IMG/VR virus record: IMGVR_UViG_3300035034_001430
Coordinates: 1-28,397 of that record
Source: a virus
Reading direction: 5' to 3' (one strand)
Length of the DNA: 28,397 nucleotides
Under the pieces are notes generated by a model that searched no databases, was not told the DNA's origin, and worked only from the letters and a program-made list of their open reading frames with translations. The position numbers and the translations under genes were made by a program. Positions 1,965 through 28,397 of the stretch are shown here, one piece after another (position 1 is the first letter of the stretch; every line of letters begins with the position of its first letter).

Positions 1965-2582
1965 ATGAGTGTATTAGCAAAACCAGTTTTAACTTTGAAC
2001 AAGGGGTGGACCCCAATCCGCGTAGACACCGTACTGAAGGTCATAAGTGATATAAGTATTGGTACAAAATGCGCCCTTGATCACGAAAACTACATTGTAT
2101 ATGACTGGGAAGGTTGGCAGGAATTGCCAGTCCTTGAAGGTCATCGCTCTATCAAGATGACGCGAGGTCGCGAGATCCGCGTGCCTGAAGTTGTTGTTTG
2201 CGCTGAATACAACAAGATCCCTAGACAGTCCATCAAGCTGAATAGGAGAAACCTGTACTTGCGCGATAATTACACTTGTCAGTACACTGGCGAGAAATTC
2301 CATCCTGACAATCTTAACCTTGACCACGTTCTACCCTCATCGCGTGGAGGCAAGTCTACTTGGGATAACCTTGTTACTTGTTCGGTAAGGATCAATACGC
2401 TTAAAGGAAACATGACGCCCCAAGAGGCAGGACTGAAGTTGCTTTCGAAGCCTCGCAAGCCTAAGTTCTCTCCTTTGTACAATCATGTCGGGTCTGTTAA
2501 GACGATGCTTCCTAGTTGGGAGAAGTTTTTGCCCAAAACAGGAGGAATCCTTGGGGCTTCTCTAACCGAATCTGGTAAATGA
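1965..2582 (+). CDS. HNH endonuclease
   Basis: 205 residues in the common free-standing HNH nuclease layout. An N-terminal VLTLNKGWTPIRV strand region leads to the nuclease core at about residues 97-150: RRNLYLRDNYTCQYTGEKF, LNLDHVLPSSRGG, TWDNLVTC, then RINTLKGNMTPQEAG. Catalytic H121 (in D-H-V-L-P), N135 and N144 are in place. The family normally has two C-x-x-C zinc knuckles; here only the first cysteine of each remains (CQYT and CSVRI), so zinc is probably not bound in the usual way. It starts three bases after the macro gene and ends in an ATGA overlap with the next gene. It could be a homing-type nuclease or a processing or packaging nuclease. I see no intron around it. Confidence 0.85.
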   Translation: MSVLAKPVLTLNKGWTPIRVDTVLKVISDISIGTKCALDHENYIVYDWEGWQELPVLEGHRSIKMTRGREIRVPEVVVCAEYNKIPRQSIKLNRRNLYLRDNYTCQYTGEKFHPDNLNLDHVLPSSRGGKSTWDNLVTCSVRINTLKGNMTPQEAGLKLLSKPRKPKFSPLYNHVGSVKTMLPSWEKFLPKTGGILGASLTESGK

Positions 2583-3465: not shown

Positions 3466-6021
3466 ATGTCAGTATCGACGATAGAAAAGTCTGAAAAAAT
3501 TGGACAAGAAAAGAAGGAAATAGAAATTTACACATACGAAGAAGCCTTAGATGCAAGCCTTGAATACTTCGAGGGAGACGACTTAGCAGCTAAGGTTTTT
3601 CTTGATAAATATGCCCTTCGAGACAATGATCAAAACCTTCTTGAGAAAACTCCAACAGACATGCATTGGCGTATCGCTCATGAGTTCGCTCGTATCGAGG
3701 CAAAGAAGTTTAAGAACCCCATGTCCGTGGAAGAGATATTTTCTTATCTAGATAGATACAGGTATATTGTTCCCCAAGGAAGCCCGATGTACGGAATTGG
3801 AAACAACTTCCAAACCATCAGCCTTTCTAACTGCTACGTCCTTGACTCGCCTCTCGACTCATACGGAGGAATCCACAGAACAGACGAGCAACTTTCCCAA
3901 ATATCTAAACGTCGTGGCGGTGTAGGAATTGACATCACTCACCTTAGACCAAACGGGTCAACAACTCATAACGCGGCTAGAACATCAACTGGCATTACAT
4001 CGTTCATGGAACGTTTCTCTAACTCTATTCGTGAAGTAGGACAGTCCGGTCGTCGTGGAGCTTTGATGTTGACAATATCTTGTCACCACCCAGAGGTTAT
4101 TGAGTTTGCTTCGATCAAGAAAGACTTGTCAAAAGTAACTGGCGCAAACATTTCTATTCGCTTCAGTGACGAGTTTTTGAAGGCAGTAGATAATAACGAA
4201 GATTACGAACTTCGTTGGCCAGTTGATGCTAGAGAAAATGGAGAAGAACCATCTATTAGCAAGAAGGTCAACGCGGGAGAAGTATGGGACAAGATTGTCG
4301 AGAGCGCTCACGGAATGGCAGAACCAGGCATTCTTTTCTGGGACAACATTATCAAAGAGTCCCCGTCAGATTGCTACGCTGATTTGGGTTTCAGAACAAT
4401 ATGCACCAACCCTTGCTCAGAAATTCCGCTATCTGCCCTTGACTCTTGTCGTCTCCTGCTTCAGAACCTTCTTAGCTACGTTGAAAACCCTTGGACAGAT
4501 AAGGCTAAGTTCAATTACAAAAAGTTCAATGAGCATGCCCAAATCGCTCAGAGGCTTATGGATAACCTAATTGACCTGGAACTGGAAAAAATAGATGCCA
4601 TTATTGCAAAGGTTCATGCCGACCCAGAGCCAATGGCTGTTAAGCAAGTAGAAATAGACATGTGGGAAGGCGTCAAGGCCGCGTGCCTTAACGGGAGAAG
4701 AACAGGAACCGGAATTACTGCAATCGGCGATGCAATGGCTGCTTGCGGTATTCGGTATGGCAGCAAAGAAAGCATCAAATTCACAAACAAGATTTATAAA
4801 AACCTCAAACTGTCTTGCTATCGCTCGTCTGTTGAAATGGCTAAAGAACTTGGTCCATTCCCAATCTATGATGCTAAGCGAGAAGAAGATTGCCCATTCA
4901 TTCAGCGTATTGCAAAAGAAGATCCTGATCTATACGCGGACATGGTTCGTTATGGCAGGAGAAACATTGCTTTGCTGACAACGGCTCCTGCTGGATCTGT
5001 TTCTATTCAGACGCGAACCACTTCAGGTATCGAGCCTCTATTCATGGCTTTCTACACTCGCAAGAAGAAGATAAATCCAAACGACCAAAACGCCCGATGC
5101 GACGAAGTTGATCAGAACGGAGACCATTGGCAACACTTCTTTGTTGTTCACCCAAGATTCAAAGAATGGATCGTTGCCAGCGGAAGAGATCTTCCAGACT
5201 TTGGAGGAGACCCTGCTGTTGTTGAAAAAGAACTCAATTCTCTTTTCAAAGAGTCTCCTTGGTTTGAGGCGTGCGCCGAAGATCTTGAATGGACTTCTCG
5301 CGTAGATATACAGGCAATCGCGAACAAGCATGTCGATCACGCAATTTCGTCAACGCTAAACCTTCCAGAAGATGTAACAGTTGAAAAGGTTAAAGAAATC
5401 TATGCGAGAGCATGGAAGTCTGGCTGCAAGGGCATAACTGTCTATCGCAACAACTGTCGATCTGGCGTTATGGTCTCTACTGCGGACAAGAACAAGGATG
5501 AATCCAGAATAACGAAGACAGACGCTCCTAAACGACCTAAAGACCTTCCATCTGACGTACACCATACAAGAGTTAAGGGGGAAGAGTATTTTGTCATGGT
5601 CGGAAAACTTGAGAATGAGCCATATGAAGTTTTTGCTGGGAAGAATGGCTTCATGTCAAAAAGCGTAAAGTCTGCGATTGTGTCTAAAATAAAGAGAGGT
5701 CACTATCAGGCTGTTCTTGACAACGGCGAAGTTATTGAAAACATTGCTGAACATATCAGCGATGATCAAGAAGCGATTACAAGAGTCGCATCCTGTAGCT
5801 TGCGTCACGGAGTTGACATATCTTATCTTGTCCATCAGCTTGAGAAGACCAAGGGAGAGATGCAGTCGTTCGCTAAAGCAACTGCTCGTTGCTTGAAGAA
5901 GCATATTGAGGATGGTAAGAAAGTTTCTGGCGAAGAATGTCCGTCTTGCTCCAACGCCAACCTTCAACGCAGAGATGGATGCGTAACTTGTATGGACTGC
6001 GGATGGTCCCGCTGCTCATAA
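3466..6021 (+). CDS. nrdJ: Class II adenosylcobalamin-dependent ribonucleotide reductase
   Basis: 851 residues. The enzyme reduces ribonucleotides to deoxyribonucleotides using adenosylcobalamin, supplying dNTPs for phage DNA synthesis. Visible signatures: first redox cysteine C123 in SNCYVL; the glycine-rich RRGGVGIDITHLRPNGS; the active-site N-x-C-x-E at N315, C317 and E319 (NPCSEIPLS); the second redox cysteine C328; and TTAPAGSVSIQTRTTSGIEP, a class II-type loop. The C-terminus carries CPSC, then GCVTCMDCGWSRC, the cysteine-rich zinc tail of many class II enzymes, which also re-reduces the active site. No glycyl-radical motif (class III) and no adjacent nrdB are present, supporting class II. 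It is preceded by a strong ribosome binding site and followed by a strong terminator, so it may be its own transcription unit. Confidence 0.93.
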   Translation: MSVSTIEKSEKIGQEKKEIEIYTYEEALDASLEYFEGDDLAAKVFLDKYALRDNDQNLLEKTPTDMHWRIAHEFARIEAKKFKNPMSVEEIFSYLDRYRYIVPQGSPMYGIGNNFQTISLSNCYVLDSPLDSYGGIHRTDEQLSQISKRRGGVGIDITHLRPNGSTTHNAARTSTGITSFMERFSNSIREVGQSGRRGALMLTISCHHPEVIEFASIKKDLSKVTGANISIRFSDEFLKAVDNNEDYELRWPVDARENGEEPSISKKVNAGEVWDKIVESAHGMAEPGILFWDNIIKESPSDCYADLGFRTICTNPCSEIPLSALDSCRLLLQNLLSYVENPWTDKAKFNYKKFNEHAQIAQRLMDNLIDLELEKIDAIIAKVHADPEPMAVKQVEIDMWEGVKAACLNGRRTGTGITAIGDAMAACGIRYGSKESIKFTNKIYKNLKLSCYRSSVEMAKELGPFPIYDAKREEDCPFIQRIAKEDPDLYADMVRYGRRNIALLTTAPAGSVSIQTRTTSGIEPLFMAFYTRKKKINPNDQNARCDEVDQNGDHWQHFFVVHPRFKEWIVASGRDLPDFGGDPAVVEKELNSLFKESPWFEACAEDLEWTSRVDIQAIANKHVDHAISSTLNLPEDVTVEKVKEIYARAWKSGCKGITVYRNNCRSGVMVSTADKNKDESRITKTDAPKRPKDLPSDVHHTRVKGEEYFVMVGKLENEPYEVFAGKNGFMSKSVKSAIVSKIKRGHYQAVLDNGEVIENIAEHISDDQEAITRVASCSLRHGVDISYLVHQLEKTKGEMQSFAKATARCLKKHIEDGKKVSGEECPSCSNANLQRRDGCVTCMDCGWSRCS

Positions 6022-8841: not shown

Positions 8842-10761
8842 ATGGGAAGAAAAACAAATAAAGTCAAGCAATTCCAAGACATACTATCAAGTATGTCAGA
8901 GGAATTAACTGGCGAAAAAGTGGAGTCGAAATCCGATCTCCCCGACATTATAACATTCATTGAAGATGACGAATGGCTTGGGCTGGGACCTACTCTTTAT
9001 ACTGCCCAGAGAGTTGTTCTAAAGGCATTTTACAGAGGATCTCGTGGCAATGAAAATCTCGCATTAACGCCAGAAGAAATAGAATGGTGTGAAAAGAATG
9101 GTCTTAATAATGCAGATCCGGATACAGGCAGGGGAGATCTGTTAGCTAAAGTAAAGACAGACGCTACTTTCAGAGAGCTTGTTCTTGTATGGGGTCGCCG
9201 TTCTGGCAAAGACTTTATTGTTTCTCTAATCGCATTGTATGAGGCGATGCAGCTTCTTGAATTACCGGGTGGCGATCCAAGAGAATACTACGGCGTGCAA
9301 AGAGGTGCTGAAATATCTATCCTTACAATCGCTGCGTCTAAGGGTCAAGCACAGATTGCTTTCCGCGAAATTAGAGAGAAAATGAGATTCAGCAAATACT
9401 TCCAAGATAAATATCTTGCGGATGGATTGCAGCAAGGAAGCATTCGTCTTCTAACAAAGCAAGACAAATTAGATAACGAAGAGTTTAAGAAAAAGGGCAT
9501 GCCTGTCAATAATGGTTCAGTTATTATTGAAGTTGGTCACTCTAACCCTGACACGTTGGTTGGTAAGTCTTGCTTCATGCTTATCCTTGACGAAGTCGCA
9601 TCCTACAAAGTTGGAACTGTCGGGTCTGGATCTGGCGACAAAATATATGCTCTTCTTCAACCCACCATTTCTACCTACAACAGGCAAGAGCCTATCTTTG
9701 ATAAAGAAGGCAAACCTGTTATGGATGAAGAAACTGGCGAGCAAGCTGTTAAGACAGTCTATGAAGGAAAGATTGTAAGCATTTCTTCTCCTCGCGGTAA
9801 AGAGGGAAAGCTGTGGGAGCTATGGGAACGACAGGGTGAGGTTAACAACAGGATTGCATGTAGGCTTCCAACATGGGTTGTGAACGAGAGACACAAAGAG
9901 CAGACACTTCGAGAAGAATTCGACGCGATGAGCGAGCAAGAGTTCTATATGGAATTCGGCGCGGAGTTCTCAGGAACTGCTGGTGAAAATATGTTCTCGC
10001 CAGATTTGATTAGAGAGACGTTCAAGACTAATTTGAAAACAAGAGACATTGGAGAGCCTGGAAAGGTTTACTTTGCACACCTCGACCCTGCAACCAACTC
10101 CCACAATTACGCCTTAGTTGTTTGTCATAAAGAGATGTATCTTAATAAGGAAACCAGGAAGTCTGACTTCTTTATTATTGTTGACCATGTCAAGGTTTGG
10201 ACTCCAACGCCTGATCAGTTTATTCCTGTTAATGAAATTGATCAATATATGATTTCTCTTAAGAGAAGATTCCACTTAGGAATGGTAACTTATGATATGT
10301 GGAACTCTGCTGGAAGTATTCTTAAATTGAGAAAACATGGAATTCCGGCGAAGCAGACGGCTTACAATAGGCGTCACAAAATGCAGATATATAGCGAAGT
10401 CGAGGAATTGATGAAAGCCAATAGGCTTATTATTCCGAGATACGGCTTTGATGAGAACACTTCTTTTTCTACCAATCTCTTACACAATGAGATGGTTCAC
10501 TTACAGAGGAAGTTTGATGCCAGCGGATTTAAGGTTTATCCGAAGAAAGAAGGCGACGTAACTAAGACAGACGACGCTATAGACGCTCTGGCCGGCGCGT
10601 GTTGGCTTGCTATATCGAAGGACGTAAACAGGCTACCTTCTGGCAAACTTGTCAACACAGGGGCTGTCCCGCAGGCTCAGAAGCATGACTGGCAAACAAT
10701 GCAGGGCGGAACAATGACGAAAAAAGATTGGGATATTGTCAGTAGGCTTCGTGGTCGATGA
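8842..10761 (+). CDS. terL: Terminase large subunit
   Basis: 639 residues. The motor that packages phage DNA into the prohead and cuts the concatemer. ATPase: Walker A GRRSGKD at residues 118-124 (K123) and Walker B MLILDE at 246-251 (D250, E251), followed by ISSPRGKEGKLWELWE, a coupling-motif region. Nuclease (RNase H fold): FAHLDPATNS with D415, a middle YDMWNS segment, and TKTDDAIDALAGACW with D577, D578 and D581. Both domains are complete and no intein interrupts the gene, although the portal downstream carries them. The ATG follows a long hairpin that covers the ribosome binding site. The last codons form part of a terminator stem. Portal lies ~15 kb downstream, an unusually long separation. 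Confidence 0.93.
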   Translation: MGRKTNKVKQFQDILSSMSEELTGEKVESKSDLPDIITFIEDDEWLGLGPTLYTAQRVVLKAFYRGSRGNENLALTPEEIEWCEKNGLNNADPDTGRGDLLAKVKTDATFRELVLVWGRRSGKDFIVSLIALYEAMQLLELPGGDPREYYGVQRGAEISILTIAASKGQAQIAFREIREKMRFSKYFQDKYLADGLQQGSIRLLTKQDKLDNEEFKKKGMPVNNGSVIIEVGHSNPDTLVGKSCFMLILDEVASYKVGTVGSGSGDKIYALLQPTISTYNRQEPIFDKEGKPVMDEETGEQAVKTVYEGKIVSISSPRGKEGKLWELWERQGEVNNRIACRLPTWVVNERHKEQTLREEFDAMSEQEFYMEFGAEFSGTAGENMFSPDLIRETFKTNLKTRDIGEPGKVYFAHLDPATNSHNYALVVCHKEMYLNKETRKSDFFIIVDHVKVWTPTPDQFIPVNEIDQYMISLKRRFHLGMVTYDMWNSAGSILKLRKHGIPAKQTAYNRRHKMQIYSEVEELMKANRLIIPRYGFDENTSFSTNLLHNEMVHLQRKFDASGFKVYPKKEGDVTKTDDAIDALAGACWLAISKDVNRLPSGKLVNTGAVPQAQKHDWQTMQGGTMTKKDWDIVSRLRGR

Positions 10762-13880: not shown

Positions 13881-14053
13881 TGCGATACGTCCTTACTAAG
13901 CTGGCTAAAGAGAAGCAAAAAAGCAATAAACAAAACGACGACGAGATGGTTCGTCGTTACTTCGGCGATCTGTACGACGAAGAATATGCTGACGCTTTAG
14001 TCGCTGACGAAGATTCGCCTCGCAAAGAAGCGGACTCTCAAAGTGATGACTGA
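13880..14053 (+). CDS. Small acidic protein (57 aa)
   Basis: A short gene starting with the ATG that overlaps the previous TAA (TAATG). It codes for 57 residues beginning MRYVLTKLAKEKQKSNKQ and ending in an acidic tail (YDEEYADALVADEDSP). The M-R-Y-V-L-T-K-L-A opening is of the same kind as MRIVKTAKY and MKLLVTAKA in the genes upstream. The stop TGA (14051-14053) overlaps the start of the next gene, and the tight overlaps on both sides support that it is real. Function unknown. Confidence 0.65.
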   Translation: MRYVLTKLAKEKQKSNKQNDDEMVRRYFGDLYDEEYADALVADEDSPRKEADSQSDD

Positions 14054-14825
14054 CTCATGGTCTATGATTAAAAAAGAACTTGCCGTCTATGGGATCAATC
14101 TCTTAGACGGTAATCTTTGTGAATATTTTTCTGATGGAAATTTAAACAAATTAGAGCTTGTCGAAATGGATAAGATCATTAGAGAAGAAATCAAAGATAA
14201 TACAACACTATTAAATGACCTTTGGATAGACCTGTCCAAAGTTCTAAATGAAACAGGCGATGTAAGCGACATATCTGATCCCAGATCTAATCGCCTTTTC
14301 ATATTCTCTCTCAAAGATCTTTCTTCATGGTTAAACATGTTTGACCCAATGGAAGTGAAACAGTACAAGCCAGTTATAGAGAATGCCCTTAAAAGGGACT
14401 CTTTATCCTATTCTGAAGATCAAAAGAAAAAGATTGTTGAATACAAGATCAGTATAGACTGGGTCCATAGAGTTATATCTAGACTTTATTACATGAGACG
14501 ATTGGTAAAGGTCGCATACAAAGGCAAAACAGAAGCTAACAAGAACAAAATTGTTGTTGCTAAAGGAATATCTGGTCCGTGGGCTAACCTTGACCTACCT
14601 ATGCAGGAGCGTGTTTGGAACTGGATGGAAGAAGATGAGAACTTCCGGAACAGAGACAGAAACATTCGCAAGCAAAGGAGATACCGTAAGGGTCTTGAAC
14701 ATTATAATAAGCCCGAGGTGGGCGAAGGTCACTATTGGCGAGAAATAAGAAACGAACCTTACAAATGGTCAGACAAGGGTTCTGAAAGTCCGTATCCAAG
14801 TCGAAACACTATGTTTTGGGGTTAA
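14046..14825 (+). CDS. Hypothetical structural-region protein
   Basis: 259 residues from the ATG at 14046 (a GTG one codon earlier is possible). The first half is helical and acidic (MDKIIREEIKDNTTLLNDLW, SLKDLSSWLNMFDPMEVKQY). The second half is basic and aromatic (DWVHRVISRLYYMRRLVKVA, RKQRRYRKGLEHYNKPEVGE, HYWREIRNEPYKWSDKG). It ends with PYPSRNTMFWG and a normal TAA. The IsrB element begins within a few bases after this stop, so the gene itself appears intact. No family recognised. Confidence 0.75.
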   Translation: MTDSWSMIKKELAVYGINLLDGNLCEYFSDGNLNKLELVEMDKIIREEIKDNTTLLNDLWIDLSKVLNETGDVSDISDPRSNRLFIFSLKDLSSWLNMFDPMEVKQYKPVIENALKRDSLSYSEDQKKKIVEYKISIDWVHRVISRLYYMRRLVKVAYKGKTEANKNKIVVAKGISGPWANLDLPMQERVWNWMEEDENFRNRDRNIRKQRRYRKGLEHYNKPEVGEGHYWREIRNEPYKWSDKGSESPYPSRNTMFWG

Positions 14826-14836
14826 TAAGTCAACTA

Positions 14837-14857
14837 CCCAACGCTAAAGCTGTTGGG
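14837..14857 (+). repeat. Left-end hairpin of the IsrB element
   Basis: CCCAACGC and GCTGTTGGG pair over 8 bp with a TAAA loop and one bulged T, the form of hairpin bound by Y1 (TnpA) transposases. It is identical to 16129-16149. Confidence 0.85.
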
Positions 14858-15094
14858 CTTGAGGAGTAAGATGCTTACCACATCACAATCTTCGAGTTAA
14901 ACGGGAGACTAGCTTGCCCAAGATCAGGGAACCCCTGGTCGCCTGAAGGAAACTGAATCACCTGAGCGTGGTAGCTCAAGAGTACGTTAGAGATGCTCCC
15001 CAAGTCTTTAACCTCTACGGAGATCAGTAGCGAAGGGGTATATACACAGGTTTTCAGTCCTGGCTTACCGCACTAAAACTGAAGAGAGTCAATT
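14837..15094 (+). ncRNA. Probable omega-RNA (IsrB guide RNA scaffold)
   Basis: 258 non-coding bases directly upstream of isrB, the place and size expected for the omega-RNA of IscB/IsrB systems. Stems visible: the end hairpin; GTAAG/CTTAC (14866-14878); an 8-bp stem GATCAGGG/CCCTGGTC (14922-14940); GAGC/GCTC (14964-14976); CTC/GAG around 15012; and CAGG/CCTG near 15048-15062. CTTGAG (14858-14863) is complementary to CTCAAG (14974-14979), a possible long-range pairing. In this family the guide is the 5' extension that reads the flanking DNA just outside the left end, here the bases before ~14836 (TTTTGGGGTTAATAAG region). The RNA role is inferred from family knowledge; expression is not shown. 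Confidence 0.7.
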
Positions 15095-16102
15095 ATGTTT
15101 GTACCAGTAGTCAACCAGAAACAAGAACCGCTCATGCCCACGACTTGCAGTCGTGCTGCAAGGTGGATCAAGTCTGGTAAAGCCACTGGTTTCTTCAAGA
15201 AAGGATTATTCTGTGTCAGATTAAATCGAAAACCATCAGATAACAGGAGACAACAGATCGCTGTAGGTATAGACCCAGGCTCAAAACGAGAAGCTTATAC
15301 AGTTAAATCTGAATCTCATACTTACCTCAATGTCTTGTCAGAAACGCCTGGTTGGGTCAAGGATGCTGTAGAAAAGAGAAGAAACGCCAGAAGGGCGAGA
15401 CGACAGAGAAACACGCCTTGTAGAAAGAACAAGCATAACAGATCGAGGAGTCCGTTCCCTCCTTCTACTAAGTCTAGATGGCAGTTAAAACTCAGGATCT
15501 GTTCTTGGTTGAAACAGCTGTTTCCTGTGTCTGCATTTGTAGTAGAAGATATCAAGGCTAGAACTTGGAAAGGAGCAAAGAAATGGAATAAATCGTTCTC
15601 TCCTCTAGAGGTTGGCAAGAAATGGTTTTATCACGAACTTTCTGTTTTAGCTTCTGTTCAGACGAGGCAAGGTTACGAAACGAAAGAGTTGCGAGACGTT
15701 CTTAGTCTTAAAAAGTCTAGTTCTAAGATGTCTGATAAGTTTGAGTGTCATAACGTAGATAGTTGGGTATTAGCCAATAGCGTTGTTGGAGGGCACATAA
15801 AGGTTGATAATAAAAGCATGTTAAAATTAGTTCCTTTTCAATTCCACAGGAGACAGTTGCATGTGTTTCAGCCTGCTTCTGGGGACAAGAGAAGGAAGTA
15901 TGGTGGGACGAGGAGTCTCGGTTTGAAACGAGGCAGTCTAATAATTCATACGAAGTATGGGTTGAGTTATGTTGGTGGGAGCATGAAAGAAAGGGTTAGT
16001 CTTCATTGTTTGGAGACTGGCAAGAGGCTAACGCAGTCAGCAAAGGTGTATGATTGTGTGTTTAAGGCTTATTGTAGTTGGAGAAGTTTTAACATTGTTT
16101 AA
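15095..16102 (+). CDS. isrB: IsrB RNA-guided nickase (IscB family, no HNH)
   Basis: 335 residues. It has an N-terminal PLMP domain (EPLMPTTCSRAARWIKSGKA, P-L-M-P at 12-15) and RuvC-I GIDPGSK with D60. An arginine-rich bridge helix RRNARRARRQRN (95-106) follows. RuvC-II is FVVEDIKA with E151, and RuvC-III is HNVDSW with H219 and D222. Between RuvC-II and RuvC-III there are only ~65 residues and no HNH domain, which marks IsrB rather than IscB (usually ~400-500 aa). All RuvC catalytic residues are present, so it may be an active RNA-guided nickase. The start ATG at 15095 follows GAAGAGAG and ends the leader RNA. The stop lies inside a tandem repeat of TTTAACATTG (16088-16107), which duplicates the last codons. 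TnpB is excluded by the PLMP domain. Confidence 0.88.
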   Translation: MFVPVVNQKQEPLMPTTCSRAARWIKSGKATGFFKKGLFCVRLNRKPSDNRRQQIAVGIDPGSKREAYTVKSESHTYLNVLSETPGWVKDAVEKRRNARRARRQRNTPCRKNKHNRSRSPFPPSTKSRWQLKLRICSWLKQLFPVSAFVVEDIKARTWKGAKKWNKSFSPLEVGKKWFYHELSVLASVQTRQGYETKELRDVLSLKKSSSKMSDKFECHNVDSWVLANSVVGGHIKVDNKSMLKLVPFQFHRRQLHVFQPASGDKRRKYGGTRSLGLKRGSLIIHTKYGLSYVGGSMKERVSLHCLETGKRLTQSAKVYDCVFKAYCSWRSFNIV

Positions 16103-16112
16103 CATTGTTTAA
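16088..16112 (+). repeat. Tandem 10-bp repeat at the isrB stop
   Basis: TTTAACATTG occurs twice in tandem (16088-16097, 16098-16107) and is followed by a third TTTAA. The isrB stop is at 16100-16102, so the second copy repeats the end of the gene after the stop. It may reflect slippage; no function is apparent. Confidence 0.7.
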
Positions 16113-16149
16113 GGAGGCGTCAATTCCTCCCAACGCTAAAGCTGTTGGG
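16113..16149 (+). repeat. Right-end hairpins of the IsrB element
   Basis: GGAGG (16113-16117) and CCTCC (16126-16130) form a stem around CGTCAATT. This is followed, with two bases of overlap, by the 21-nt hairpin sequence (16129-16149) identical to the left end. The pairing has a bulged T, as at the left end. The GGAGG...CGTCAATTCCTCCC arrangement is typical of IS605-type right ends. Confidence 0.8.
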
Positions 16150-16168
16150 TTTCCACGACGCGATTATT

Positions 16169-17509
16169 ATGAACTGGTTTGTAAAGTTAGGTCAATCAGA
16201 ATTCGGTGGCGGCATCAGGTCTGCTATCACATGGAACAAGTACGGCACGGCATTCTTTACCGTATATGGCAATACAATGCCCATCAAAGATCAACTAAAG
16301 GCTATGAAGTTTAGATACTATCAAGGCAGATGGGGTCAAAATGCAGAGACGGTTAAAAACGATCCTGTAAAGATGCAAAATCTTCAAGATATTGGTGTAC
16401 CAACTGACGTATTGAATCAAGAACTTGTTAAGCCAGAGATGCAGCAAATGCAAGATCCTCAGCAGCCCCAGCAGCAGCAGACGCAGGATCAGCCTCAAGC
16501 GTCTGAAGCAGATGCATACATAACAAAAATGCAGCAAGAAGTTGAACAGGCAGTTGCTAACGCTGAAGGAGGTCCGGCAAAAGCCATGCTCGATTATGTA
16601 GATCAGATGCTGGATAAACTTGCCGCCGCTGTTGATGATACAGAAAGGCAGGCGTTCATTAAAAAATATCTTGCTTTTGCTGCGAAATTCCACAACTATA
16701 GTTTTGGCAACCAAATGCTAATTATGATGCAGAAGCCAGATGCTCAAAAAGTAGCAGGCAAATCTACCTGGGCTTCTGAGTTTGGTAGAGAAGTCAAGCC
16801 TGACGCAGCTCCCATTACCATAATTAGACCAAATACGTCAACAAGCAAAGAAGGCAAAGAACTGAAAAAGAAAATGCCTAAAGAACAATGGAATCAGGTT
16901 AAAGGTCAATACGAAAGAACCATGTTTGCAGGAGCTTCAGTGTACGACATCTCTGACACGGAGCCGTTGACATGGTGGAAGGGTCCAAATGGAGAGGGTC
17001 CGTTTGAAATTCCTAAGATGGAGAACAGGGACGACAACGAAGCGCTTGAAGAAGTAACGGCTTTGGTTGACGCTGCGTCTTCTTGGGCTGGGAAGCTTGG
17101 CATTAAGATAGAAGACGAGGAATTGAGAGAAAATCATAGCGGATATTCTTCTGGAGGCAGGGTCGCTATAAATAGCACCTACGATGGAGTCAGAAGATTA
17201 GGAACATTGGTCCACGAGCTTGCTCACGAAATACTGCATACTTCTAAAGAAGGTAGAGCGCAAGGAAAAGAAGAGAAGTGGACCTCGAAAGATATAGAGA
17301 TAGATGCCGAAGCCACCGCATACATAGTTTTGGATCATTACGGATTCCCTTCCAAAGAAGCCGTAGATTACATATCTCTTTTCCAACGAGCAACAGGAGA
17401 AGACATTAAGAAAAGAATATCAATGGTAAGCAAAGCAGTTGGAACAATTATTTCAGGAATAAGTAAAGAAATATCTAGCGCACCCGCGCCTGACGAAATA
17501 GGAAATTAA
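16169..17509 (+). CDS. ArdC-like antirestriction protein with zincin domain
   Basis: 446 residues. Residues ~27-60 (TAFFTVYGNTMPIKDQLKAM, then KFRYYQGRWGQ) resemble the small G-N-T-x-P-I-K-D-x-L-K domain common in phages. A Q/P-rich linker follows. Then comes an ArdC N-terminal-like domain (FAAKFHNYSFGNQMLIMMQK, then VAGKSTWASEFGREVKP) and a metallopeptidase domain with H349-E-L-A-H353 and a downstream E381. ArdC proteins bind single-stranded DNA and protect incoming DNA from restriction. The zinc-protease part may act on host proteins. ATG 16169 is taken; an in-frame TTG at 16145 lies inside the IS end. Neither has a good ribosome binding site, which the insertion may have removed. Confidence 0.72.
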   Translation: MNWFVKLGQSEFGGGIRSAITWNKYGTAFFTVYGNTMPIKDQLKAMKFRYYQGRWGQNAETVKNDPVKMQNLQDIGVPTDVLNQELVKPEMQQMQDPQQPQQQQTQDQPQASEADAYITKMQQEVEQAVANAEGGPAKAMLDYVDQMLDKLAAAVDDTERQAFIKKYLAFAAKFHNYSFGNQMLIMMQKPDAQKVAGKSTWASEFGREVKPDAAPITIIRPNTSTSKEGKELKKKMPKEQWNQVKGQYERTMFAGASVYDISDTEPLTWWKGPNGEGPFEIPKMENRDDNEALEEVTALVDAASSWAGKLGIKIEDEELRENHSGYSSGGRVAINSTYDGVRRLGTLVHELAHEILHTSKEGRAQGKEEKWTSKDIEIDAEATAYIVLDHYGFPSKEAVDYISLFQRATGEDIKKRISMVSKAVGTIISGISKEISSAPAPDEIGN

Positions 17510-17963: not shown

Positions 17964-18322
17964 TGACTACAGTTCTTGTTAAACATCCTGTCAAAAAGAA
18001 TAAGGCGTCACCGACGCCTATTTTTTGGTATGACATAGAGAATAAAAAGATGCTTAGGTTTGATGCCGACCGAATAGAATTCAAATTCGAATACGACAAA
18101 GAACTTAAGAAGCATGTTAGAAGACCATTCGGAGTTGTCGTAGAAGAAAAAGACGACACTGTTGAAGTAGAAGATTGGTACAAGACATATGAGCGGGGAA
18201 CGTCAGGCTCTTCAATCGAGTCAAAGCAGAATGACGGTATCCGATTTGAAGTAGAAGATGATGAGGTTGACGACTTTATTCGTAGCGCGAATAGAAAAAA
18301 GCTAAAAACGAGGGTGCTGTGA
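17963..18322 (+). CDS. Hypothetical protein (119 aa)
   Basis: 119 residues, unrecognised. It starts with the ATG overlapping the previous stop. It is strand-rich and charged (PIFWYDIENKKMLRFDADRI, RRPFGVVVEEKDDTVEVEDW), with an acidic segment (VEDDEVDDFI) and a basic end (RSANRKKLKTRVL). No cysteine, no membrane segment. The stop overlaps the GTG start of the next gene (GTGA). Likely co-translated with its neighbours. Confidence 0.68.
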   Translation: MTTVLVKHPVKKNKASPTPIFWYDIENKKMLRFDADRIEFKFEYDKELKKHVRRPFGVVVEEKDDTVEVEDWYKTYERGTSGSSIESKQNDGIRFEVEDDEVDDFIRSANRKKLKTRVL

Positions 18323-19242
18323 AACTAATAGCAGAAATAGCAGATACGCCTGATAAGCAATCTATGGGTCTTATGTTCCGTAAGTCTCTTGAGTTTGATG
18401 AGGGAATGTTATTTAAATTCGAAAAGCCAAAGAAATTAGGCTTCTGGAATGTAAATACATTCATACCTCTCGATATCGCATTCATTGATAAAGACAATGT
18501 AATCACAGAGATATCTAGAATAAACGCAACAAGCAATGTCTCTGTAACAAGACCTCAAGTTGTAACAAGCAGCAAAGATTGTGTTCTTGCTATTGAAACC
18601 AATGCAGGATTCTTTAGCGATCACAAAATAAAAGAGGGTCAGGTCATTCGTATCGATGAAGGACCAGGCGGTAAAGCGATCATCTCTTTTTCTGATAATG
18701 TCAAAACCGCTCAACAATTAATTGATAAAAAAGATGAAATGAGTCCCGCAAAATTCACTAATAGAAGCCTATTAGACAATATGAACAATTATGAGAATCC
18801 AGGCAACTTGCCAGTTATTAGCCTTGATGAAATTAGCTCTATATTAGAAGATTCATACGATGAAGATACGGACGAATACCAACCTACAGAGCCAGAAGTA
18901 AGTCCTGAGACGCAAGATATGGCTCCTACTGATGAGCCTCAAGAACCATTCCCCGTACCCGAAGAAGAAGAATATCCAAACTTCGGAAACGCTGCTGATG
19001 CTCTCATGTATGCTCAGGATCAAAACGAAGTTTTGCGCATTTGGTATCAAACCAAGAGAGGCAGAGATATAGAAAGATCAGTTGCTCCTCATGGAATATT
19101 CTTTGCTGAGACTACAGGGAATACGATTGCAGTTACCTATGACTTCGATGTTGGAGACATTAGAGCGTTCATTGTGGACAATATTTTGCATTTTAATTTC
19201 GAAGGTAAAAAGTTCGAGCCGATGTTCTTGGTTAAGCAATAA
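18319..19242 (+). CDS. DUF192 domain protein with C-terminal WYL-like domain
   Basis: 307 residues from a GTG overlapping the previous stop. Residues 1-~115 match DUF192: TPDKQSMGLMFRKSLEFDEG, MLFKFEKPKKLGFWNVNTFI, PLDIAFIDKDNVITEI, then LAIETNAGFF and KEGQVIRI, the usual G-L-M-R ... W-x-x-N-T-x-I-P-L-D pattern. Then come a KTAQQ motif and an acidic, proline-rich linker. The last ~75 residues (EVLRIWYQTKRGRDIERSVA, TYDFDVGDIRAFIVDNIL) resemble a WYL domain, which binds ligands or nucleic acid in defence regulators. Neither domain's biochemical role in phages is known to me. The combination is unusual. Confidence 0.72.
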   Translation: MKLIAEIADTPDKQSMGLMFRKSLEFDEGMLFKFEKPKKLGFWNVNTFIPLDIAFIDKDNVITEISRINATSNVSVTRPQVVTSSKDCVLAIETNAGFFSDHKIKEGQVIRIDEGPGGKAIISFSDNVKTAQQLIDKKDEMSPAKFTNRSLLDNMNNYENPGNLPVISLDEISSILEDSYDEDTDEYQPTEPEVSPETQDMAPTDEPQEPFPVPEEEEYPNFGNAADALMYAQDQNEVLRIWYQTKRGRDIERSVAPHGIFFAETTGNTIAVTYDFDVGDIRAFIVDNILHFNFEGKKFEPMFLVKQ

Positions 19243-26021: not shown

Positions 26022-28397
26022 ATGTCAATTTTAAAATTTCAGATGCCTGAGCCTGGAGACAGCAGGCTCAATAAAAGAATTGCATCTACTGGGGGTCCGG
26101 GGCGTAACTCAAAACCTACGTTATATGCAAGGGGAAATACAGCAAGCGTACCCATCACGAGGAATGCTCAATTCGCAGGTTCAGGCGCGTCTGTAACAAT
26201 GACGCAACCCATGTTCTTCTCGCCACTGCATACGCCACAAAACTGGCAGATTGCATCTAAGCGTAGAGAAATATATCAATGGGCAAGGTTCTATTACGAA
26301 AACGAACCCAAAGTAGCAGCAGGTATCGACTTCTATTGCTTCGATCCGTCCACTCCTGTTCTGATGGCGGACGGTAGTCAAAAATCTATATCTTCTATTA
26401 AAATTGGAGACTTGGTAAGAAGCCACGATGGTTCTTCCAATCAGGTTGCTAAGGTTAATGTTAGAGATGCTTATGACGAGGATATGTTAAAGATAAAAAT
26501 ATCGGGGGTATCTTGTGGCTATGATCTTTCGGTCACACCTGGACATGAGATGCTGGTTATTAGGGACGGCAAAGAGAAATTTATTCAAGCTAAAGATCTA
26601 AATAATAATGATTATTTGTTGACTCCTTGCAAGTATGAAGAAAACGACATTGCAGGAAAAATAGACAAAAGACATGAGGATTTTATGTGGCTTTTGGGAC
26701 TGTACTCAGCAGACGGCTGCCAGATCCCATATAAGCATATAAGTAAAAAACTCAAGGCTTCTGACTATGGTAAGGGAATATATTTAACTCTTTCTTATAA
26801 CGAAAAGAGTGTAGCAGAAAAAGCTGTATCTATTGCTAAGTCAATATATGGTTGCAGTTATACAATTAGGCAAATTAAGAAAAAGGGAGTGACCGTCGTG
26901 TCTCTTTATGGGAGATCCATTGCAGACGACATGTCAGGGCTTTGTCCTGGCTCGGGACGAAAAGGGAGTAAAAGATTTTCTCCCCACATAATGAAGCAGG
27001 GCTATCCTTATCTAATTAGTTTACTTAACGGGTTTTATGCTGGAGATGGGTGTTTTACTAAAAATAGCGGTTTCCAAGGAGTCGGCGTTTCTTCCCTAAT
27101 GATGGAGCAAGTTGCCAATATGCTTGACAGGTGTGGAATCCGGTACTCATTTTATTGTCAAAACAAGGTTAAAGGCAACAGGCAACCTATCTATAATGTA
27201 AGAATATCAAGATCAGATGCTGAAAAATACTTTGCAGATAACCATAAGGTTTATAAAACGCATACAAATGAAGATTTCGCAAGAAACTTTTCAATATTGC
27301 AAGATGGAAAGTATATTAAGAGGAAAATTAGATCTATACAAAAGTTCACCTACAGCGGTCTCTTGTACGACTTAAGTGTTGACAATGTACATTCTTATGT
27401 AGTAAACAGAATATCTTGCTCGAATTCTAACTTCCCCATGAACGGGTTTAATCTAGAATGTCCAAATACAAAGATACTCGAATTCTATGAAGATGTCGTA
27501 GAAAACCTGGAACTTAACAAGTGGCTTAACTACATTAGCCATGAATACTTTCTATTAGGCGAAGTGTTCCCATTCTTGGAAATTCACTGCCCAGAATGCG
27601 AAATGTCAGGAACGGATAGCGATGGAGAGGTTTGCAACCACCCAGGAGGAACGTTTACATCTATTCGAGTCATGAACCCAGACTATATTGAAGTACAAGA
27701 TAACGTTCTTGCTAAAGAGCCTGTTATTGCGATGACGCCTGATGAAGAATTAAAGATGATCATTCAAAGGAAAGAGCCTCGTCAAATATATGACAGCCTT
27801 CCTGAATTCTTAATTGAACTTGTTTCTTCCGGGCAACCTATACCTCTTTCAAGTAGAAGTATTAGCCATATCAAGTTTAACTCATCGTCGTATGCAACAT
27901 ACGGAACGTCTTTGCTTAGAAGATTATTTACGGTTCTTGCTTATAAAACAAAGCTAATGACAGCTAACTGGATCGTCGCCGAAAGACTTATACTTCCAGT
28001 GCGTGTTGTTAAGATTGGCGAGAAAGATCGTCCGGCTTCTGAAGAAGATATTCAAGATGTTGTTAACCAACTTGCAGCCGTCGCTAACGACCCAAACTTA
28101 ACCATTGTTACACACCACGCTTTCGATTATGAATGGTATGGCAGCTGCTATGACGACCAAACAGAAGTCCTTACTTCAAATGGCTGGTCTCTTTTCAAAG
28201 ATACTACTGTTGATAATATCTTTGCTACTTACAACAATGAAAACGGGCAACTACAATACCAACAAGCAGAAGAATATCATGAATATGACTATGACTCTAT
28301 GCTGTACGGTCCCATGTATAACTTTAAAGCCCGTTCTGTAGACATTAATGTTACTCCAAATCACCGCATGCTCATCGAGAGAAAAGGCGAGAATATA
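26022..28397 (+). CDS. Portal protein precursor with two inteins (3' end outside window)
   Basis: Open from ATG 26022 (GGGAGA upstream) to the window edge, 792 codons. The extein parts are residues 1-105 (ending YYENEPKVAAGIDFY), then SNFPMNGFNLECPNTKILEF through THHAFDYEWYGS. They fit the portal ring protein of T4-like and other large phages: the N-P/FPMNGF core, HEYFLLGEVFPFLEIH, FTSIRVMNPDYIEV, and SHIKFNSSSYATYGTSLLRR. The portal is the DNA channel at one capsid vertex and the terminase docking site. An insertion CPECEMSGTDSDGEVCNH looks like a small zinc knuckle. The first intein (residues 106-468) is complete; the second begins at residue 709 and runs off the window. The mature extein seen is ~345 residues, so about a third of a usual portal lies beyond. 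Confidence 0.85.
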   Translation, partial: MSILKFQMPEPGDSRLNKRIASTGGPGRNSKPTLYARGNTASVPITRNAQFAGSGASVTMTQPMFFSPLHTPQNWQIASKRREIYQWARFYYENEPKVAAGIDFYCFDPSTPVLMADGSQKSISSIKIGDLVRSHDGSSNQVAKVNVRDAYDEDMLKIKISGVSCGYDLSVTPGHEMLVIRDGKEKFIQAKDLNNNDYLLTPCKYEENDIAGKIDKRHEDFMWLLGLYSADGCQIPYKHISKKLKASDYGKGIYLTLSYNEKSVAEKAVSIAKSIYGCSYTIRQIKKKGVTVVSLYGRSIADDMSGLCPGSGRKGSKRFSPHIMKQGYPYLISLLNGFYAGDGCFTKNSGFQGVGVSSLMMEQVANMLDRCGIRYSFYCQNKVKGNRQPIYNVRISRSDAEKYFADNHKVYKTHTNEDFARNFSILQDGKYIKRKIRSIQKFTYSGLLYDLSVDNVHSYVVNRISCSNSNFPMNGFNLECPNTKILEFYEDVVENLELNKWLNYISHEYFLLGEVFPFLEIHCPECEMSGTDSDGEVCNHPGGTFTSIRVMNPDYIEVQDNVLAKEPVIAMTPDEELKMIIQRKEPRQIYDSLPEFLIELVSSGQPIPLSSRSISHIKFNSSSYATYGTSLLRRLFTVLAYKTKLMTANWIVAERLILPVRVVKIGEKDRPASEEDIQDVVNQLAAVANDPNLTIVTHHAFDYEWYGSCYDDQTEVLTSNGWSLFKDTTVDNIFATYNNENGQLQYQQAEEYHEYDYDSMLYGPMYNFKARSVDINVTPNHRMLIERKGENI
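26337..27425 (+). mobile_element. Intein 1 in portal, with LAGLIDADG endonuclease
   Basis: 363 codons. Starts at C106 (CFDPSTPVLMADG, block A; KIGDLV follows), with block B at LSVTPGHEML. LAGLIDADG motifs are LLGLYSADG (residues 224-232) and LLNGFYAGDG (334-343), whose acidic residues D231 and D342 would be catalytic. The C-terminal splicing blocks are LYDLSVDNVHSYVV and RISCSN, with N ending at 27425 and serine as +1. Removing it joins GIDFY to SNFPMNGF, a natural portal sequence. The usual penultimate histidine is a serine here. Confidence 0.88.
28146..28397 (+). mobile_element. Intein 2 in portal, N-terminal part
   Basis: Begins at C709 (28146) with CYDDQTEVLTSNGWSLF (block A) and has block B NVTPNHRML. 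The reading frame from WYGS changes from portal-like to intein-like at this cysteine. Only 84 residues are in the window; presence of an endonuclease and the C-terminal splice site cannot be judged. Confidence 0.8.

What the first reader, a model, noticed from the sequence alone, without database searches (positions are those of the whole stretch)
14826..16155. IsrB RNA-guided nickase element in a phage structural region
A complete PLMP/RuvC/bridge-helix protein without HNH (335 aa), with D60, E151, H219 and D222 in place, sits behind a structured leader and between matching ends. IsrB is the least studied branch of the IscB family (the lineage from which Cas9 arose). A phage-borne copy with an intact catalytic core, placed between virion-region genes, is worth describing. 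It may help the element invade sister phages at this locus.
Basis: partly seen in the sequence, partly recalled or inferred. Interest (0 to 1): 0.82.

Follow-up and report, generated by a model that had tools for sequence, protein, structure and literature searches.

The report
Phage-borne IsrB RNA-guided nickase element
This piece of a virus of bacteria carries a small mobile element that makes a guide RNA and an RNA-guided DNA-nicking enzyme (IsrB, a cousin of the ancestors of Cas9), inserted exactly in front of the start codon of a neighbouring gene; it is a real and well-preserved new example of a kind already known.

Summary
Window 15095-16102 encodes a 335-aa IsrB: PLMP, RuvC and bridge helix, no HNH, with D60/E151/H219/D222 invariant in 42 relatives. 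The closest solved structure by sequence and by fold is DtIsrB. In a tree it falls with IsrBs, apart from HNH-bearing IscB, in a clade of phage, cyanobacterial and Poribacteria proteins. The leader (14829-15094) is an omega-RNA: a weak Rfam HEARO match, but 20 of 25 helix pairs covary and both pseudoknots described for IsrB omega-RNA are present and covary. Boundaries refine to 14829-16168. In 50 relatives the element is followed by ATGA/GTGA (the expected TAM) and begins GTCA, so an occupied site lacks the TAM. Relatives have empty alleles in sister genomes. Here ATGA is the start codon of the downstream gene, a strong trend in the clade. No TnpA is present. Best reading: an IS200/IS605-derived OMEGA element whose flank-derived guide directs nicking of empty sites in co-infecting phages (homing-like retention). 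Anatomy and target rule are shown; nicking, RNA expression and homing are inferred; no sister phage with an empty site was found. Phage IsrB/IscB has precedent, so this is a new member of a known kind.

The parts
14043..14825 (+). Upstream phage gene of unknown function (260 aa); its last codons and stop lie in the presumed guide
   Evidence: ORF list; no Pfam or PHROGs match
14809..14828 (+). Left flank = predicted 20-nt omega-RNA guide, CTATGTTTTGGGGTTAATAA
   Evidence: Flank varies between relatives and stops at the conserved GTCAACTACCC/GTCACTAACCC; guide position and length as in DtIsrB (PMC9581776)
14829..15094 (+). Left end and omega-RNA scaffold (266 nt)
   Evidence: HEARO 14829-15093, 25.4 bits; relatives' HEARO matches begin at exactly the same boundary; covariation
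14837..14857 (+). Left-end hairpin CCCAACGCTAAAGCTGTTGGG (SL1-like)
   Evidence: Identical copy at the right end; covarying stem
14877..14972 (+). Adaptor pseudoknot: ACCA 14877-14880 with UGGU 14969-14972
   Evidence: A-U/G-C covariation, 97% of cells paired
14957..15024 (+). Central stem 14957-14962 with 15019-15024, enclosing the hairpin 14963-14978 and further stems
   Evidence: All 6 pairs of the stem have compensatory changes; coordinates
14998..15038 (+). Nexus pseudoknot: CCCC 14998-15001 with GGGG 15035-15038
   Evidence: U-A/C-G/A-U/G-C covariation, 94% of cells paired
15095..16102 (+). IsrB, 335 aa: PLMP, RuvC, bridge helix, TAM-interacting domain, no HNH; D60, E151, H219, D222
16129..16149 (+). 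Right-end hairpin, identical to 14837-14857
16150..16168 (+). Right-end tail TTTCCACGACGCGATTATT; element ends at 16168
   Evidence: Aligned with right ends of 49 relatives that also stop just before [A/G]TGA; rule verified on empty sites of two relatives
16169..16172 (+). ATGA: right flank, expected TAM of the empty site, and start codon of the downstream gene
   Evidence: TAM NTG/NTGA of IsrBs (PMC9581776)
16169..17509 (+). Downstream phage gene, 446 aa, weak ArdC-N and M78 peptidase-like similarity; intact

Best explanation
This is a complete IsrB OMEGA element of IS200/IS605 descent without its own TnpA, resident in a phage genome between two intact genes. Its leader is transcribed as an omega-RNA whose 5' 16-20 nt are copied from the left flank (14809-14828). 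IsrB uses this RNA to find the same sequence followed by NTGA, which exists only where the element is absent: the element itself begins GTCA, which spoils the TAM. It nicks the non-target strand there with its RuvC domain. During co-infection or replication, nicked empty copies are repaired from element-bearing copies or lost, so the element is kept or spread like a nicking homing endonuclease. First placement at a new ATGA site needs a TnpA supplied in trans. Shown: protein type, intact active site, structured RNA with both pseudoknots, ends, target rule, empty alleles of relatives. Inferred: transcription, nicking, homing, trans-mobilisation.
For: Protein: DtIsrB best, E=5.9e-27; catalytic residues invariant in 42 sequences; pLDDT 87.1, pTM 0.85; DtIsrB TM 0.80, first of all PDB; IsrB side of the tree, SH-aLRT 100. 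RNA: 20/25 pairs with compensatory changes, 92.7% paired, at most 49% when slid; both pseudoknots covary. Ends and target: (left end GTCA, right flank RTGA). Empty alleles: the L072 site joins base-exactly in L145 and L146; the L067 site is uninterrupted in L156 and L161 with only single-base differences near the join. Mobility among phages: L016 and L017 elements 91.6% identical over 1.2 kb in unrelated flanks. Precedents: DtIsrB nicking (PMC9581776), TnpB gene drive in plasmids (PMC11870625), nicking homing enzyme in jumbo phage competition (PMC11620839).
Against: No empty-site sister of this phage was found, so homing at this locus is not shown. No TnpA in the window and in only 3 of 14 phage records; most records are fragments. 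The HEARO match is far below the Rfam gathering score. A nick is a weaker driver of homing than a double-strand break. No expression data.
Confidence: 0.78

Rival explanations
1. A stranded, passive passenger: an intact-looking IsrB element brought in by a cellular TnpA and carried neutrally because it sits harmlessly between genes, with no active retention or homing in the phage.
For: No TnpA in the window or in the largest phage records; the insertion leaves both neighbouring genes open; Microcystis phages share one IsrB between the same neighbour genes, as expected of vertical inheritance.
Against: Catalytic residues invariant across deep phage branches and RNA helices and pseudoknots kept by compensatory change imply continued selection for function; near-identical elements sit in unrelated phage contexts.
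Confidence: 0.2
2. A domesticated phage tool: IsrB with its guide, or with other RNAs in trans, acts against competing phages, plasmids or the host rather than serving the element.
For: Nicking homing enzymes can work as weapons between jumbo phages (PMC11620839); one 545-kb phage record carries four RRXRR genes, one IsrB and three of IscB length.
Against: The guide is simply the left flank of the insertion, as in relatives; its 16-nt seed plus TAM has no exact match in 2.9 million viral contigs; no extra omega-RNA was identified.
Confidence: 0.1
3. The leader is mainly a cis-acting regulator of translation or the DNA end for transposition, and not a guide RNA.
For: The first hairpin is repeated at the right end and is a DNA end as well; the IsrB ribosome-binding region lies in the RNA 3' end.
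Against: The right end repeats only the hairpin; the rest of the leader covaries as RNA, including the two pseudoknots required for DtIsrB nicking (PMC9581776).
Confidence: 0.05

Closest known systems
DtIsrB, Desulfovirgula thermocuniculi (PDB 8dmb; PMC9581776)
   Same: Domain order, size (about 350 aa), no HNH, RuvC residues, about 262-nt scaffold with adaptor and nexus pseudoknots, TAM ending in TGA; R311-x-x-Q314 here has the spacing of the TAM readers R323-x-x-Q326
   Different: About 26-30% identity; different clade in the tree; pseudoknot wiring here looks like group A (first hairpin pairs with the 5' strand), Dt is group B; phage-borne
K2IsrB (viral metagenome contig k249_576930; PMC9581776)
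   Same: IsrB from a virus, group A omega-RNA, NTG TAM
IsrB of uncultured 485-kb phage LR745208 and of IMG/VR phage contigs L002, L007-L019, L030
   Same: 48-64% identity, same clade, and where readable the same left and right ends
   Different: Other insertion loci and neighbours
Cyanobacterial and Poribacteria IsrB elements (L048-L095)
   Same: About 50-65% identity, same ends, same RTGA flank
   Different: Chromosomal; many cyanobacterial right ends carry a Shine-Dalgarno-like motif, which the window lacks
IscB / HEARO nucleases (PMC9755519)
   Same: PLMP-RuvC-bridge helix core, HEARO-type RNA, viral members known (over 16% of fragments)
   Different: IscB has an inserted HNH domain and cuts both strands; separate clade
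Phage nicking homing endonucleases, e.g. PhiPA3 gp210 (PMC11620839)
   Same: Proposed function: nick the element-free allele in a co-infecting phage
   Different: Protein-guided HNH enzyme inside an intron, no guide RNA

Membership tests
IsrB (OMEGA nickase) | PLMP + split RuvC + bridge helix architecture | tested here: met
   RRXRR 5.7e-31; AF2 model pLDDT 87, best PDB match DtIsrB TM 0.80
IsrB (OMEGA nickase) | No HNH domain between RuvC-II and RuvC-III | tested here: met
   335 aa; no HNH hit in Pfam; DtIsrB aligns with it without a large insert
IsrB (OMEGA nickase) | Intact RuvC catalytic residues | tested here: met
   D60, E151, H219, D222 invariant in 42 sequences
IsrB (OMEGA nickase) | Phylogenetic grouping with IsrB apart from IscB | tested here: met
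   HNH IscBs one side of a branch, SH-aLRT 100; window with DtIsrB on the other
IsrB (OMEGA nickase) | Upstream omega-RNA with adaptor and nexus pseudoknots | tested here: met
   Covariation; window keeps 23 of 25 nested pairs and all 8 pseudoknot pairs
IsrB (OMEGA nickase) | NTG/NTGA TAM next to the guide sequence in the empty site | tested here: inconclusive
   ATGA follows the right end here and ATGA/GTGA in 49 relatives; empty alleles of two relatives confirm the rule; no empty allele of the window's own site
IsrB (OMEGA nickase) | RNA-guided nicking of the non-target strand | not testable with these tools
   Needs a nicking assay
IS200/IS605 superfamily element | Subterminal hairpins at both ends, insertion without target duplication | tested here: met
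   Hairpins at 14837 and 16129; relatives' empty sites show no duplication
IS200/IS605 superfamily element | Own Y1 transposase TnpA | tested here: not met
   No PF01797 in the window; so not an autonomous IS200/IS605 element
Rfam HEARO RF02033 | Score at or above the gathering threshold of 83 bits | tested here: not met
   25.4 bits, E=0.009 in 1.8 kb; full-length match and exact boundary, so HEARO-like rather than a curated member
IscB | HNH insertion; NCBIfam guided_IscB above cut-off | tested here: not met
   89.9 vs 175 bits, N-terminal half only
TnpB / Fanzor / Cas12 branch | TnpB-type RuvC domains; RNA guide at the 3' side of the element | tested here: not met
   No TnpB family matched; best solved structures are IsrB/IscB, Cas12f far behind

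The most novel reading that the evidence does not exclude
A distinct, largely phage-borne IsrB clade works in phages as RNA-guided nicking homing elements that insert exactly in front of start codons (the TAM ATGA includes the start codon), with ends shaped so that neither neighbour is broken: the left end supplies a stop, some right ends supply a ribosome-binding site, and GTCA at the left end protects the occupied site.
Probability: 0.35. Interest if true: 0.65.

Novelty: new member of a known kind. Interest (0 to 1): 0.42.

Why it matters
IsrB is the smallest RNA-guided branch on the path to Cas9, and its natural role is not established. Phage genomes are multi-copy, recombine heavily and already host homing nucleases, so they are a natural setting to test whether a nickase alone can drive a gene. 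The clade gives clear, testable predictions: guide = left flank, TAM = ATGA, occupied site protected by GTCA.

Tried and rejected
Empty site of this phage: searched through the downstream protein, a degenerate DNA pattern of its N-terminus (the one hit is chance), terminase, the upstream protein and guide+TAM as DNA: none. Folding the leader alone was uninformative. HEARO was not seen at the gathering threshold, nor in L002-L005 in a 40-kb search. Self-targeting: the guide has one copy in the window, followed by GTCA rather than NTGA. IscB, TnpB and an autonomous IS200/IS605 element were considered and rejected (membership table). The start-codon statistic uses RTGA to define the ends, so the 50/50 RTGA figure is by construction; the independent checks are the empty alleles and the Rfam boundaries.

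Full report
What was checked. The window is a 28,397-base virus record with a terminase (8842-10761), a portal gene broken by inteins (26022-28397), a ribonucleotide reductase, a MazG-like protein, a sigma-70-like protein and an HNH endonuclease. The finding is a 335-aa ORF at 15095-16102 with a 266-nt leader.

The protein. Pfam places it in RRXRR, the PLMP/RuvC-I/bridge-helix part of IscB and IsrB. The NCBIfam IscB model matches only the N-terminal half and below its cut-off, as expected of a protein without HNH. Among all PDB sequences the best is DtIsrB (E=5.9e-27, along residues 3-294), IscBs far behind. An AlphaFold2 model on 42 relatives is confident (pLDDT 87.1, pTM 0.85); the top of all PDB folds is DtIsrB, TM 0.80. 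D60, E151, H219 and D222 are invariant in the 42 sequences. R311-x-x-Q314 has the spacing and C-terminal place of R323-x-x-Q326, which read the TAM in DtIsrB (PMC9581776); the correspondence was not superposed. In a 72-row tree, HNH-bearing IscBs form one side (SH-aLRT 100). The window lies in a 37-row clade (support 100, stem 0.9) of 14 phage rows and 23 cellular rows (mainly cyanobacteria and Poribacteria), apart from DtIsrB and from the clade of Crocosphaera, Dolichospermum and Microcystis-phage IsrBs. Cyanobacteria and Poribacteria form nested groups; phage rows are spread over the base, but inner order is poorly supported.

The RNA. cmscan finds HEARO over the whole leader, 14829-15093, weakly (25.4 bits, E=0.009). 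In four relatives HEARO matches begin at exactly the left boundary set by comparison. An alignment of 26 leaders gives a consensus with 25 pairs, 20 of them with compensatory changes; 92.7% of cells pair, against 68.5% in shuffles and at most 49% when slid. Two further interactions were then found: ACCA (14877-14880) with UGGU (14969-14972), and CCCC (14998-15001) with GGGG (15035-15038). Both covary, 95.6% of cells paired against at most 45% when slid. They correspond to the adaptor and nexus pseudoknots of IsrB omega-RNA, whose disruption abolishes nicking in DtIsrB (PMC9581776). Their wiring (first hairpin with the 5' strand, second with the 3' strand) fits that paper's group A, which includes the viral K2IsrB; assigning the group is my inference.

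Ends and target. Left ends of relatives start GTCAACTACCC or GTCACTAACCC, right after a flank that differs in each. Right ends have a hairpin, GGGTTTCC-like bases and about 10-20 more, then ATGA (47) or GTGA (3). Because RTGA was used to place the end, this was tested independently. Flanks of two cyanobacterial elements, joined by the rule, were searched in family genomes. Uninterrupted alleles exist, with a base-exact join for L072 in L145 and L146. For L067, the alleles L156 and L161 differ from the join only by single-base differences near it. The empty allele therefore reads guide + ATGA, and insertion duplicates nothing. By the same rule the window's element is 14829-16168, the guide is 14809-14828 and the TAM is ATGA at 16169-16172. 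Since elements begin GTCA, the occupied allele puts C where the TAM needs G (47 of 51 left ends are GTCA); protection of the occupied site is my inference.

Start codons. In 27 of 49 elements the flank RTGA opens a frame of at least 150 codons, against 5.6 expected from other RTGA in the same loci; for phages 4 of 9 against 1.1. In L072 the gene begins like 2-isopropylmalate synthase (my identification by eye from the translated sequence). Ten of 19 cyanobacterial right ends carry AGGA/GGAG/GAGG at ribosome-binding distance, 1.1 expected, though these elements are related and not independent; the window's right end has none. In the window the predicted empty site places GGGG seven bases before the ATG of the downstream gene. 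I found no description of this start-codon habit in the papers held; the original HEARO paper is not held.

Mobility. L016 and L017 are 91.6% identical over 1.2 kb of element in unrelated flanks, and no two phage elements tested share flanks (the hits listed there are re-fetched copies of the same loci, apart from one weak hit). A Y1 transposase is in 3 of 14 phage records and not in the window, the 485-kb or the 545-kb record. TnpA presumably acts in trans.

Mechanism and its status. Shown: protein type, active site, RNA fold, ends, target rule in relatives. [quoted passage not shown] TnpB drives insertion sequences through plasmid populations (PMC11870625); a nicking homing enzyme gives a jumbo phage an advantage in co-infection (PMC11620839). 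Inferred: that this IsrB nicks empty sister genomes and so is retained or spread.

Verdict. A genuine phage IsrB element. Phage carriage of this family is known: K2IsrB came from a viral metagenome, over 16% of HEARO-nuclease fragments looked viral or prophage-derived (PMC9755519), and Microcystis phages have annotated RRXRR genes. Hence a new member of a known kind, with a target-site habit that deserves follow-up.

Noticed in passing
window 26022-28397 (+): Portal gene with two apparent inteins: one with a LAGLIDADG domain, and the start of a second (SCYDDQTEVLTSNGW...) cut off by the contig end.
   Followed up: partly
window 1965-2582 (+): Free-standing HNH endonuclease, probably another homing-type gene in the same phage.
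   Followed up: no
IMGVR_UViG_3300037484_000435 (L019, L047, L133): A 545-kb phage record with four RRXRR genes (one IsrB, three of IscB length; L047 has a visible HNH region) and no Y1 transposase.
   Followed up: partly
L063:5090-5104, L064:4486-4500, and right ends of L053, L056, L072: Cyanobacterial IsrB right ends carry a Shine-Dalgarno-like motif (AGGAGGTTTTC|ATGA), as if restoring the ribosome-binding site displaced by insertion.
   Followed up: partly
L016 and L017: Near-identical phage IsrB elements (91.6%) in unrelated flanks: recent movement between phages or loci.
   Followed up: yes
L008, about 3710-3760: Two tandem copies of the left-end start and hairpin (GTCAACTACCCAC...) upstream of one IsrB.
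   Followed up: no
L003:102-3554 (LR745208): DNA polymerase gene of the 485-kb phage appears to hold two inteins (read from the translation).
   Followed up: no
G001 (L007 contig), 26841-29320: Two RRXRR genes about 2 kb apart on one phage contig.
   Followed up: no
window 18319-19242 (+): Fusion-like gene with DUF192 and WYL domains.
   Followed up: no
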